DNA of 64,000 bases from Frigoribacterium sp. CFBP 13712 (GTDB taxonomy: Bacteria; Actinomycetota; Actinomycetes; Actinomycetales; Microbacteriaceae), in contig NZ_JACYVH010000003.1 in NCBI RefSeq assembly GCF_014842255.1, positions 62,001-126,000 on the forward strand. Reading direction: 5' to 3'. Both the position numbers and the translations under genes were made by a program. The notes below the pieces were generated by a model. That model saw only the letters and a list, made by a program, of their open reading frames with translations, was not told where the DNA came from and did not search any database. Below, in pieces: positions 16,260 through 60,648 of this stretch (position 1 is its first letter; each line of letters opens with the position of its first letter).

Positions 16260-17597
16260 CTACCCGACCAGGCGCTCCGCCACCGCGTCGAGCAGGGCGT
16301 CGGCGACCTCCCGCTTCGACCCGCGGGCCTCGGCGACCTCCGCACCCTCACGGTCGATGACGATCACCGAGGTGTCGTCGGCGCCGAAGCCGGTCGTCCA
16401 TCCCACCGAGTTCAGCACGAGCAGGTCGGCGCCCTTCCGCAGCTGCTTCGTCCGACCCAGCGCCACGAGCTCGTCGCGGTCCTCCGTCGTCTCGGCGGCG
16501 AACCCCACCACGACCTGACCGTCGCGGCGAGCGGCGACGAGACCCGCGAGCACGTCGGGGTTCCGGACGAGTCGCACGGTCATCTCGTCGCCGGTGTCGT
16601 CCTTCTTGATCTTGCCGGGGGCGACCTCGGCCGGCCGGTAGTCGGCCACCGCGGCGGTCATCACGACGACGTCGTGCGCGGCCGCCTCGGCGCCCATGGC
16701 GGTCTCCAGCTCGAGCGCGGACGAGACCGGGACGACGCGGATCGTCGGTGCTGCGGCCAGCGACTGCAGCACGGCCCCGTCCAACTCGGCAGCGACGACG
16801 GTCACGTCGGCGCCTCGTCGAGCCGCGGCGAGGGCGATGGCCGCACCCTGCTTGCCTGTCGAGCGGTTTCCGATGAACCGCACCGGGTCGAGGGGTTCGC
16901 GGGTGCCGCCTGCCGACACGACCAGGCGGACGCCGGCGAGGTCGGCGACCCGCGCCTCCTCGGCTCCCGACGGATCAGCCGAGGAGGCGCGGGTCGCCAC
17001 CGCGAGGGCCGCCGCGACGATCTCGTCCGGCTCGCTCAGTCGACCCGGCCCCGAATCGCCGCCGGTGAGCGGTCCGTCGGCGGGTCCGACCACCGTCACC
17101 CCGCGTGCGCGCAGCAGCTCGATGTTGGCGACGGTCGCCGCGTTGCGCCACATCTCGGTGTGCATCGCGGGGGCGACGACGAGCGGCGCGGTGCTGGCGA
17201 GGATCGTCGTGCCGAGCAGGTCGTCCGAGAGACCGTGCGCGATCTTGGCGAGGGTGTGAGCCGTGGCGGGGGCGACGACGATCAGGTCGGCCTGCTGCCC
17301 GAGCGCGACGTGCCGCACCTGCGCCACGTCGTCGAAGACCGAGGTGCGCACGGGGTTGCGGCTGATCGCCTCGAGGGTCGGTGCGCCGACGAATCGCAGG
17401 GCCGCCTCGGTCGGCACGACGTGCACGTCGTGACCCTGCAGCACGAGCCCGCGGACGACGCCGACGGCCTTGTACGCCGCGATCCCGCCGGAGATGCCGA
17501 CCACGACGTTCAGCCGCCGCGACGATCCGGTCGAGTCGGTCGCGACGGTCGAGTCGGTCGGGTCGGCGGGGGAGTGCGGGGAGGGGTCGTGCGTCAC
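16260..17597 (-). CDS. coaBC: bifunctional phosphopantothenoylcysteine decarboxylase / phosphopantothenate-cysteine ligase
   Basis: This 445-residue two-domain enzyme performs two steps of coenzyme A synthesis. The N-terminal FMN decarboxylase (CoaC) shows NVVVGISGGIAAYKAV (~30-45), APATAHTLAKIAHGLSDDLL (~109-128) and VAPAMHTEMWRN. The C-terminal ligase (CoaB) shows VVSAGGTREPLDPVRFIGN (~227-244) and STGKQG. The lid motif reads LTGGDSGPGRL, with Gly where E. coli Dfp has its catalytic Cys; as I recall, mycobacterial enzymes look similar here. A 55-base palindromic element lies inside the gene and encodes the inter-domain linker (~201-219). GTG at 17597 is my choice, with AGGG upstream; the N-terminus is Pro/Ser/Thr-rich and uncertain. 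The gene is away from its usual rpoZ-metK position. Confidence 0.93.
   Translation of the reverse strand: MTHDPSPHSPADPTDSTVATDSTGSSRRLNVVVGISGGIAAYKAVGVVRGLVLQGHDVHVVPTEAALRFVGAPTLEAISRNPVRTSVFDDVAQVRHVALGQQADLIVVAPATAHTLAKIAHGLSDDLLGTTILASTAPLVVAPAMHTEMWRNAATVANIELLRARGVTVVGPADGPLTGGDSGPGRLSEPDEIVAAALAVATRASSADPSGAEEARVADLAGVRLVVSAGGTREPLDPVRFIGNRSTGKQGAAIALAAARRGADVTVVAAELDGAVLQSLAAAPTIRVVPVSSALELETAMGAEAAAHDVVVMTAAVADYRPAEVAPGKIKKDDTGDEMTVRLVRNPDVLAGLVAARRDGQVVVGFAAETTEDRDELVALGRTKQLRKGADLLVLNSVGWTTGFGADDTSVIVIDREGAEVAEARGSKREVADALLDAVAERLVG
16944..16998. repeat. palindromic repeat element inside coaBC
   Basis: Two 22-base arms (16944-16965 and 16977-16998) are perfect reverse complements around an 11-base spacer. 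Each arm contains CGACCCGCGCCTCCTCGG, the motif dispersed through this window. Its length of 55 bases is one base more than a multiple of three, and the gene stays in frame. It encodes the stretch ATRASSA to EEARVA between the CoaC and CoaB domains. Confidence 0.9.
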
Positions 17598-17651
17598 GGG
17601 AGTGCCCTGTCGATCGGTGCGGACGGTCGGCCGACCCGGGGCCCCGGTCGG

Positions 17652-17657
17652 TAGCGT
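17652..17657 (+). promoter_or_regulatory. candidate -10 box for the NRDE gene
   Basis: TAGCGT lies in the coaBC/NRDE divergent gap. The same string, TAGCGTTGC, precedes rel at 35315. A GCCGTGCG/CGCACGGC hairpin (17700-17721) would be in the leader. Confidence 0.35.
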
Positions 17658-59500: not shown

Positions 59501-59779
59501 ATCGAGGCGGACACCGTCGCGAAGTTCAGCGCGGGCGGCCACTCGGTCGTCGATCTGATCAACGCCGACGAGGTCGACATCGTGATCAACACGCCGAGCG
59601 GTTCGAGCGCCCGTGCCGACGGCTACGAGATCCGTGCGGCGACCGTCGCCGCCGACAAGGCGCTCTTCACGACCATCGCCCAGCTCGGTGCCGCGGTCGC
59701 GTCGATCGAGGCCGTCCAGACCGAGCTCGAGGTCACGAGCCTGCAAGACTACGGACTCGCGCGGGCGGCCCGACTGTGA
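56504..59779 (+). CDS. carB: carbamoyl-phosphate synthase large chain
   Basis: CarB (1091 residues) makes carbamoyl phosphate from bicarbonate, ammonia and two ATP. Two homologous ATP-grasp halves are seen, each with its start ([20 protein letters not shown] and [20 protein letters not shown]), ATP loops ([11 protein letters not shown] and [11 protein letters not shown]) and [10 protein letters not shown] / [10 protein letters not shown]. The C-terminal MGS-like allosteric domain covers about residues 950-1091. The product feeds both PyrB and arginine synthesis. Confidence 0.97.
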
Positions 59780-60648
59780 CGGCCGGGGCCTCGGCTCCGG
59801 CCTTCGGCGAGCGGCTCGGCGAGGTCTTCGACCGTCTCGGCCCGCTCTGCGTCGGCATCGATCCGCACCCGTACCTGCTCGACGCCTGGCGTCTGCCGGG
59901 CGGGGCGGCCGGGGCGCGCGACTTCGGTCTGCGGGTGGTCGACGCGGCGCACCGAGGAGGCGCGGGGATCGTGAAACCGCAGGTCGCCTTCTACGAGCGG
60001 TGGGGTTCGGCCGGCTTCGCCGCCCTCGAAGAGGTCCTGCACGCCGCGCGTCAGGCGGGGCTGCTGGTCATCGGCGATGCCAAACGCGGCGACATCGGCA
60101 GCACCATGGACGCCTACGGGGACGCCTGGTTCGATCCGGAATCGAGCCTCCGGGTCGACGCGCTGACGGTGTCTCCGTACCTCGGTCTCGGCTCCATGAC
60201 CGGTCTGGTCGCACGAGCCCGTCGCGCGGGTGCGGGCGTGTTCGTGCTCGGCGCCACCTCCAATCCGGAGGCGCGGGTCACGCAGACGGCGCGGCGCACC
60301 GACGACGACGGCACGGTCTCGACCGTCGCGGGCGGTATCGTCGACGACGTGCTGCACGACAACCAGATCGCCGGAGAACCCCGGTTCGGCTCCGTGGGGC
60401 TGGTGCTCGGCGCGACGGTCGACCTCGTAGCCGCCGGCGTCGACCCCGACCGCTTGACCGCCACGCCCGTCCTCGCGCCCGGGTTCGGGCACCAGGGCGC
60501 GCTCTACCGCGACATCCCCGCCCTCTTCGGCGCTGCGGGCCGTTCGGTCGTCGTCTCGACCTCCCGGGCGCTGCTCGAGCACGGTCCGTCCGACCTCGCC
60601 GACGCGATCCGTCGCGACTCCGACGAGATCCGCCGATGCCTCGTCTGA
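59776..60648 (+). CDS. pyrF: orotidine 5'-phosphate decarboxylase, type 2
   Basis: PyrF (290 residues) makes UMP from OMP. The long type 2 form is indicated by [30 protein letters not shown] and the catalytic [26 protein letters not shown]-like and [10 protein letters not shown] segments bind phosphate. GTG overlaps carB by four bases. Two dispersed motif copies (59956 and 60267) lie inside in reverse orientation. pyrD and pyrE are not in the window. Confidence 0.94.
59956..59966 (-). repeat. dispersed motif copy in pyrF (first)
   Basis: CCCGCGCCTCC on the minus strand, followed by TCGG. Confidence 0.7.
60267..60278 (-). repeat. dispersed motif copy in pyrF (second)
   Basis: ACCCGCGCCTCC on the minus strand, 300 bases from the first copy in the gene. 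Confidence 0.8.

What the first reader, a model, noticed from the sequence alone, without database searches (positions are those of the whole stretch)
16944..60278. A dispersed 18-base motif, CGACCCGCGCCTCCTCGG, spread through genes and gaps
The 12-base core ACCCGCGCCTCC occurs at least ten times: 16948, 16983(-), 21013, 21042(-), 22544, 43150, 48707(-), 49374, 52165 and 60267(-). The 11-base core adds 5715(-), 24309(-), 45985 and 59956(-); shorter forms occur at 18104, 38095, 52453 and 55122. By rough hand estimate at ~70 % GC, less than one chance copy of the 12-mer is expected on both strands. Copies lie in both orientations about equally and in different reading frames (TRAS, EEAR, RRRG), so protein constraint does not explain them. 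The balance of orientations argues against a polar Chi or KOPS signal. Mobile mini-repeats, a DNA-binding site or an uptake-type sequence remain open. I do not recognise a described family.
Basis: partly seen in the sequence, partly recalled or inferred. Interest (0 to 1): 0.75.

Follow-up and report, generated by a model that had tools for sequence, protein, structure and literature searches.

The report
Uptake-like DNA watermark in Frigoribacterium
A short DNA word is scattered hundreds of times over the genomes of the bacterium Frigoribacterium, much like the 'self' labels by which Neisseria and Haemophilus recognise their own DNA during uptake; related genera carry other spellings of what may be the same word, but the function has not been tested.

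Summary
The 12-mer occurs 10 times in the window (0.07 expected); the 18-mer 196 times in this 3.16 Mb genome, its reversed form 0 times. The genus is Frigoribacterium. All 16 held genomes of it carry 178-632 copies of the 12-mer; 292 other Microbacteriaceae examined are at background. The unit is a strict core, CGCGCCTCC(T), with graded flanks. Copies show no strand polarity, use all six frames, and 39-46% lie outside predicted genes. Close pairs are in excess, many inverted. Cores are conserved while their surroundings are variable. These are hallmarks of Neisseria DUS and Haemophilus USS. Other genera of the family carry other dispersed words, CGGCATCCG or GCGCATCCG; the cores GGCATCC, CGCATCC and CGCCTCC differ by one base per step, like DUS dialects. 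I judge an uptake-type self-recognition sequence most likely (about 0.5). Uptake is untested and the receptor unknown: this species lacks the PilB-type ATPase found in 13 of 16 congeners but has ComEA, ComEC and Tad genes. Searches found no description in print.

The parts
3123..3131 (+). 9-base core CGCGCCTCC, in predicted CDS
5715..5723 (-). core (11-mer form), in CDS
7897..7905 (+). core, in CDS
8295..8303 (-). core, in CDS
9493..9501 (+). core, no predicted CDS
9688..9705 (-). 18-mer with 1 mismatch (inside the core)
11072..11080 (-). core, in CDS
12964..12972 (-). core, in CDS
15594..15602 (-). core, no predicted CDS; between two tRNA genes
16946..16963 (+). exact 18-mer; left arm of an inverted pair inside a CoaBC-like gene, between its two domains
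16979..16996 (-). exact 18-mer; right arm of that inverted pair
18104..18112 (-). core, in CDS
18247..18255 (+). core, in CDS
20586..20594 (-). core, in CDS
21009..21057 (.). inverted pair (exact 18-mer 21011-21028 +, 12-mer 21042-21053 -) between convergent predicted genes; hairpin of -41.9 kcal/mol
22542..22559 (+). 18-mer with 2 mismatches (12-mer intact), in an aminotransferase class-V gene
24305..24322 (-). 18-mer with 2 mismatches, in CDS
25015..25023 (+). core, in CDS
29746..29754 (+). core, in CDS
38091..38108 (-). 18-mer with 2 mismatches, no predicted CDS
43148..43165 (+). 18-mer with 1 mismatch, no predicted CDS
45982..45999 (+). 18-mer with 2 mismatches, no predicted CDS
48703..48720 (-). 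18-mer with 2 mismatches (12-mer intact), in chorismate synthase gene
49372..49389 (+). 18-mer with 2 mismatches (12-mer intact), in CDS
52163..52180 (+). 18-mer with 3 mismatches (12-mer intact), in CDS
52453..52461 (-). core, near the end of a CDS
53075..53083 (+). core, in CDS
55118..55135 (+). 18-mer with 3 mismatches, in CDS; the 10-base core is intact in the 10 relatives compared
59952..59969 (-). 18-mer with 3 mismatches, in CDS
60267..60278 (-). 12-mer, in CDS

Best explanation
The motif is a self-recognition sequence of the DUS/USS kind. A DNA-binding component of the uptake machinery (a Tad/Flp minor pilin, ComEA or an unknown surface protein) binds CGCGCCTCC on free DNA. Fragments from Frigoribacterium are therefore taken up by ComEA/ComEC and recombined into the chromosome more often than foreign DNA. 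That bias both spreads and preserves copies, in both orientations and in any frame that proteins tolerate. Inverted pairs between genes may also have come to serve as hairpin terminators. Other genera of the family use other spellings (CGGCATCC, GCGCATCC). Shown: copy number, genus restriction, lack of polarity, strict core with graded flanks, conserved core in variable surroundings, excess of close and inverted pairs, related words in other genera, presence of comEA-, comEC- and Tad-like genes. Inferred: recognition by a protein, role in uptake, identity of the receptor, terminator function, common descent of the dialects.
For: 196 exact 18-mers against 0 for the reversed word. 12-mer 178-632 copies in 16 of 16 Frigoribacterium genomes, reversed control 0-6; CCCGCGCCTCCT at most 18 in 292 other family genomes (reversed control up to 22) against 217-637 in 7 Frigoribacterium. 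Top-ranked word without prior choice in two species. 78 of 202 core sites lie outside predicted genes, which leave 11.6% of bases uncovered; all six frames. Close pairs (up to 40 bases) 25 against 7.4 expected, 15 inverted; in G305 23 against 6.5, 19 inverted. Orthologous core alleles identical in 45.5% of 917 comparisons in genes against 20.3% of 3551 shifted controls, and in 48.4% of 308 against 29.8% of 772 between genes. Flanks less conserved than random coding positions in 4 of 4 relatives compared (15-22 sites each, no significance test). The same picture (conserved DUS in slightly more divergent regions) is reported for Neisseria (PMC2397512, passages). DUS dialects are known in Neisseriaceae (PMC3630211, passages). 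Related family words: CGGCATCCG 254 against 21 expected in 340 kb of G063, GCGCATCCG top 9-mer in 120 kb of G028. ComEC in 16 of 16, comEA-like gene beside it, Tad cluster here. A Flp/Tad pilus is required for transformation in the actinobacterium Micrococcus luteus (PMC6370729, passages), and two Microbacteriaceae are naturally transformable (PMC11577799, passages).
Against: No uptake or transformation was shown for Frigoribacterium in anything I saw. ComEC is in 293 of 299 family genomes, with or without an abundant motif, so its presence discriminates nothing; here the ComEA and ComEC proteins score below NCBIfam's cut-offs for the full-length models TIGR01259 and TIGR00361, though above those for their domain models. 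The PilB-type ATPase of type IVa pili (the pilus type that carries ComP in Neisseria) was not found in this species and two relatives, nor in five of five g57 genomes rich in CGGCATCCG. CGGCATCCG in G063 is not enriched between genes (33 of 254 in 13.8% of bases), unlike the Frigoribacterium word. Alleles in genes are gapped more often than controls (13.6% against 7.9%; between genes 20.1% against 26.4%). In 9-base context some single changes of the core exceed expectation, among them CGCGCATCC, 27 against 9.2. At heptamer level CGCCTCC counts in other GC-rich genera (up to 19 per 20 kb outside the sense phase) come near the 20.9 of this genome, so the link between the dialect cores rests on the shared pattern, not on heptamer counts alone. 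The passages I saw on transformable Microbacteriaceae report no need for a signal.
Confidence: 0.5

Rival explanations
1. The motif is the binding site of a cytoplasmic DNA-binding protein with a chromosome-wide role (nucleoid organisation, replication or repair), with genus-specific recognition. Selection keeps sites in permissive places.
For: Very strict core: in the 11-base context, changes at the last five core positions are at or near background. Sites in all 21 stretches sampled, no polarity, conservation of copies.
Against: Does not by itself predict the excess of close inverted pairs or a switch of spelling between genera, although co-evolution could. No candidate protein was looked for or identified.
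Confidence: 0.25
2. A recombination hotspot (Chi-like) or replichore-orienting (KOPS-like) sequence.
For: Short, frequent, genus-specific, often placed in genes.
Against: Such signals as I recall them are strand-polar; here strand counts per stretch fit 1:1 in two Frigoribacterium genomes and for CGGCATCCG in G063 (P=0.55, 0.95, 0.24), and inverted pairs are common.
Confidence: 0.08
3. Primarily a transcription terminator or RNA-level element.
For: The two inverted pairs folded are very stable (z -6.5 and -9.8). In G305 29 of 87 intergenic copies lie in convergent gaps, which are 16% of gap bases.
Against: In this genome 21 of 78 intergenic copies lie in convergent gaps, which are 26% of gap bases: no excess. 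124 of 202 copies are inside predicted genes, on either strand; a single copy cannot form the hairpin; the sequence itself, not only pairing, is constrained.
Confidence: 0.08
4. A mobile mini-repeat (REP- or MITE-like) that copies itself by insertion.
For: High copy number, close pairs; in genes somewhat more gapped alleles than controls.
Against: Unit of about 10-23 bases with no fixed boundary; in genes 86% of the 917 orthologous alleles, identical ones included, align without a gap, and about three quarters of the non-identical ones do.
Confidence: 0.04

Closest known systems
DNA uptake sequence (DUS) of Neisseriaceae and its dialects
   Same: About 10-base strict core, hundreds to thousands of copies, both strands, inverted pairs forming hairpins, conserved core in permissive positions, dialects following phylogeny (PMC3630211, PMC2397512, passages seen).
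   Different: Gram-positive phylum; core CGCGCCTCC does not resemble GCCGTCTGAA; no receptor identified; in this species no PilB-type ATPase was found; uptake function untested.
Uptake signal sequence (USS) of Pasteurellaceae
   Same: 9-base core, two versions in one family, occurrence in terminator hairpins (PMC1852404, PMC3630211, passages seen).
   Different: Different sequence and phylum; function untested here.
Chi / KOPS sequences
   Same: Short over-represented words in genes.
   Different: Those are strand-polar (recalled); this one is not.
REP / MITE-like mini-repeats
   Same: Dispersed, many copies, some hairpins.
   Different: No unit boundary, more copies inside genes than outside, orthologous alleles mostly ungapped.

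Membership tests
DNA uptake sequence (DUS/USS) | About 9-12 base word, hundreds to thousands of copies, far above expectation | tested here: met
DNA uptake sequence (DUS/USS) | Both orientations, no replication polarity | tested here: met
DNA uptake sequence (DUS/USS) | Excess of close inverted pairs able to form terminator-like hairpins | tested here: met
   excess of close pairs clear, inverted share 15 of 25 here and 19 of 23 in G305; termination itself not tested
DNA uptake sequence (DUS/USS) | Core conserved while neighbourhood is more variable than average | tested here: met
   comparisons share ancestry and are not independent
DNA uptake sequence (DUS/USS) | Lineage-specific dialects within a family | tested here: met
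   different dispersed words per genus; common descent of the words is inferred
DNA uptake sequence (DUS/USS) | Competence machinery with a receptor that binds the word | tested here: inconclusive
   comEA-, comEC- and Tad-like genes present; no PilB-type ATPase found in this species; no receptor identified
DNA uptake sequence (DUS/USS) | Presence of the word raises uptake or transformation | not testable with these tools
   needs a bench assay
DNA uptake sequence (DUS/USS) | Scarce in recently acquired DNA | not tested
   the one motif-poor stretch annotated in part (7 proteins of L171) holds core genes such as pyruvate kinase and DNA polymerase I, not an island
Chi / KOPS | Strand polarity along each replichore (recalled) | tested here: not met
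REP/MITE-like mini-repeat | Discrete inserted unit, mostly outside genes (recalled) | tested here: not met

The most novel reading that the evidence does not exclude
The family Microbacteriaceae has a whole system of DNA uptake sequences with dialects (GGCATCC, CGCATCC, CGCCTCC cores), which would be, as far as my searches show, the first in Gram-positive bacteria, read by a receptor that is not a type IVa pilin, probably part of a Tad/Flp pilus or ComEA. Frigoribacterium has the longest and strictest dialect of those looked at, so that the family's genera are partly isolated in gene exchange by the spelling of one short word.
Probability: 0.4. Interest if true: 0.93.

Novelty: new variant of a known kind. 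Interest (0 to 1): 0.86.

Why it matters
In the passages I read, a required uptake sequence is described for Neisseria and Pasteurellaceae only, both Gram-negative (PMC3630211 calls this unique to them). A further, independent case in Actinobacteria, with dialects over many genera, would show that self-labelling of DNA evolved repeatedly and without an outer membrane. It would make testable how such labels arise, how a dialect switches, and which pilus part or ComEA reads them. If it turns out not to concern uptake, a non-polar, genus-specific word at several hundred to 3,000 copies still points to an unknown sequence-reading system.

Tried and rejected
Codon usage: rejected for the Frigoribacterium word (all six frames). 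In this genome the word GGCATCC is mostly codon usage (94 of 138 in sense phase 0), whereas in G063 it is not (99 of 443), and in the eight other-genus stretches examined it is mostly out of that phase; so GGCATCC here is not counted as a dialect. A rough gene finder of my own was used; it leaves gaps where genes are likely (for example 9142-10423 and 45872-46830 of the window), so intergenic shares are upper estimates.

T4a pilus as the necessary receptor: not supported, since the PilB-type ATPase was not found in G000, G299 and G303 nor in five of five g57 genomes with 750-1885 CGGCATCCG. Pfam of 7 proteins of L171 to look for a motif-poor island: core genes instead. Literature: six searches on uptake or competence words with this family, its genera or phylum, one on uptake sequences in general and one for the letters gave no description of these words. 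Of the 179 papers holding one of the four letter strings only the 20 listed titles were seen; the one on a Microbacteriaceae species (PMC12089995) has them in a probe sequence.

Limits: 10 of the 15 relatives were fetched for the orthologue work, and G302 was dropped as a near duplicate of G301. Comparisons share ancestry and are not independent. Of 40 stretches from other genera asked for came back (4 contigs too short, one cut to 5.3 kb). GCGCATCCG was counted in 95 family genomes, the other words in 299. In one search six candidates per genome were scored. The 12-mer was counted in 16 Frigoribacterium genomes, the 18-mer in 7. No structure prediction was made.
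Full report
Check of the observation. The 12-mer ACCCGCGCCTCC is at all ten places and strands given, where 0.07 are expected. The exact 18-mer is present three times in the window and 19 times with up to three mismatches (1.56 expected). Genome-wide the 18-mer occurs 102 times forward and 94 reverse, and its reversed form never; the 12-mer occurs 616 times against 3. 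In a 464 kb sample of this genome (window plus 20 stretches) words of the motif rank first by z-score at 10, 12 and 14 bases with no prior choice: CGCGCCTCCT 199 against 6.5, CCCGCGCCTCCT 89 against 0.5. The same holds in 420 kb of a relative, G305.

What the unit is. Substituting each base of CCGCGCCTCCT in turn shows a strict inner core GCGCCTCC: changes at its last five positions are at or near background in that context (0-5 seen, at most 1.7-fold in this genome and 3.5-fold in G305), while the outer positions tolerate change. In 9-base context a few single changes do exceed expectation (AGCGCCTCC 47 against 8.9, CGCGCATCC 27 against 9.2). Flanking preference is graded from about -7 to +15 and differs somewhat between species (13-27 sites each). 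The 18-mer is 32% of the 12-mers here (196 of 616) but 4-19% in the six relatives with both counts.

Who has it. All 16 genomes of the genus have 178-632 copies of the 12-mer, reversed control 0-6. In 299 family genomes CCCGCGCCTCCT is 217-637 in the 7 Frigoribacterium and at most 18 in the 292 others, whose reversed control reaches 22; the 18-mer is single in 6 of those 292 and absent in 286.

Where the copies are. Of 202 ten-base sites in the 464 kb, 124 lie in predicted genes, in all six frames, and 78 outside, where 11.6% of the bases are; in G305 102 and 87 of 189. Strand counts per stretch fit 1:1 (P=0.55 and 0.95). Neighbouring 9-base sites within 40 bases are about 3.4-3.5 times commoner than expected; 15 of 25 are inverted here and 19 of 23 in G305. 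The pair at 21009-21057 lies between two convergent predicted genes, folds at -41.9 kcal/mol (z -6.5), and is recognisable in 7 of 10 relatives (two of them near duplicates), with single base changes in one arm in three of them and with loop and flanks changed; the other three gave no alignment there. The pair at 16946-16996 lies inside a CoaBC-like gene (Pfam Flavoprotein, residues 30-198, and DFP, 220-414), at about residues 200-217, that is between the two domains; it folds at -59.6 kcal/mol (z -9.8).

How copies evolve. For 191 sites of ten genomes (136 in genes, 55 between), orthologous alleles are identical in 45.5% of 917 comparisons in genes against 20.3% of 3551 controls shifted by 36 or 48 bases, while one-mismatch alleles are rarer (11.0% against 27.7%); between genes 48.4% of 308 against 29.8% of 772. 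Gapped alleles are 13.6% against 7.9% in genes and 20.1% against 26.4% between genes, so a minority of differences involve indels. The comparisons share ancestry and are not independent. The surroundings of the coding sites are less conserved than random coding positions in each of four relatives (0.82/0.88, 0.84/0.87, 0.82/0.85, 0.76/0.85; 15-22 sites each, no significance test). A conserved word in variable places, and new copies that differ by several bases from their homologues, is what was reported for Neisseria DUS (PMC2397512, passages).

Machinery. comEA- and comEC-like genes stand side by side in this genome. They pass the cut-offs of domain models (PF03772, TIGR00360, TIGR00426) but not of the full-length NCBIfam models. 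ComEC is in 16 of 16 Frigoribacterium and in 293 of 299 family genomes, so it does not discriminate. A Tad/Flp-like cluster with a TadA-type ATPase, a T2SSF protein, an 80-residue DUF4244 protein and a TadE/G-like protein is present here. A type IVa pilus cluster (PilB, PilC-like, PilM, PilO, prepilin peptidase, two N-methylation pilins) is seen in G305; a PilB of that score is in 13 of 16 genomes but not in this one, G299 or G303. So if the word serves uptake, its reader is not a T4aP pilin in this species. A Flp pilus is required for transformation in Micrococcus luteus (PMC6370729, passages), and two Microbacteriaceae are naturally transformable (PMC11577799, passages). Neither fact shows uptake in Frigoribacterium.

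Relatives' words. Stretches of 20 kb (one of 5.3 kb) from 36 other genera showed another dispersed word in a part of them. In 340 kb of G063 CGGCATCCG occurs 254 times against 21 and is the top 9-mer; its heptamer is 221+/222-, and it is not in one frame. Whole-genome counts exceed 2000 in five genera (g26, g30, g63, g79, g85; up to 3084) while Frigoribacterium has 110-158, near its reversed control of 101-147. A third form, GCGCATCCG, is the top 9-mer in 120 kb of G028 (33 against 6.4) and is the commoner form in the 6 genomes of g12, g72, g27, g29 and g73 counted for both (807-1517 copies against 237-455 of CGGCATCCG); g9 has both in number. Among 16 heptamers of the pattern xGCxTCC, GGCATCC (2.3-fold) and CGCATCC (1.7-fold) lead in the 36 pooled stretches and CGCCTCC (2.5-fold) in Frigoribacterium, and in the stretches where they are commonest they are mostly out of the sense codon phase. 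The cores GGCATCC, CGCATCC and CGCCTCC differ by one base per step. Genomes at background for both other words exist (for example G051), and g85 ranges from 175 to 2826 in five genomes. That they are dialects of one sequence is an inference; the weaker enrichment in G028 and the lack of intergenic excess in G063 (33 of 254) differ from Frigoribacterium.

Judgement. By anatomy this works like a DUS/USS: five sequence-level features of that kind were tested and met, the receptor test is inconclusive, scarcity in acquired DNA was not tested, and Chi/KOPS polarity and mini-repeat anatomy are not met. The defining property, better uptake of DNA that carries the word, cannot be tested here, so I call it uptake-like, not an uptake sequence, at about 0.5, with a chromosome-wide DNA-binding protein as the main rival (0.25). 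Eight searches of open-access papers found no description (listings, with passages of six papers opened).

Noticed in passing
G063 (L231, L241-L256) and other Microbacteriaceae genera: A second dispersed, strand-balanced, non-codon word CGGCATCCG/CGGATGCCG with up to about 3,000 copies per genome, very uneven even within a genus (g85: 175 to 2826; g79: 677 to 3084).
   Followed up: partly
G028 (L219, L257-L261), L213, L218, L234: A third form, GCGCATCCG or CGCATCC, commonest in other genera (g12, g72, g27, g29, g73).
   Followed up: partly
L238:2923-15938 (G305) against G000, G299, G303: A type IVa pilus cluster; its PilB is present in 13 of 16 Frigoribacterium genomes and not found in the window's species and two relatives.
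   Followed up: partly
window 15456-16052: A cluster of four tRNA genes: two tRNA-Val in opposite orientation (CAC at 15456-15531 -, GAC at 15980-16052 +) flank tRNA-Gly and tRNA-Cys, giving a 57-base inverted repeat.
   Followed up: yes
L219 (G028): A near-palindromic word TGAGAGCGCT occurs 6 times in 20 kb (expectation printed as 0.0) and may be a separate small local repeat; 6 in 120 kb of the same genome (0.2 expected), so no further copies in the 100 kb added.
   Followed up: no
G000 464 kb sample: Another over-represented word, CGGGGGAGTG/CACTCCCCCG (15 against 0.8; CGGGGGAGT 38 against 2.5), apparently unrelated to the motif.
   Followed up: no
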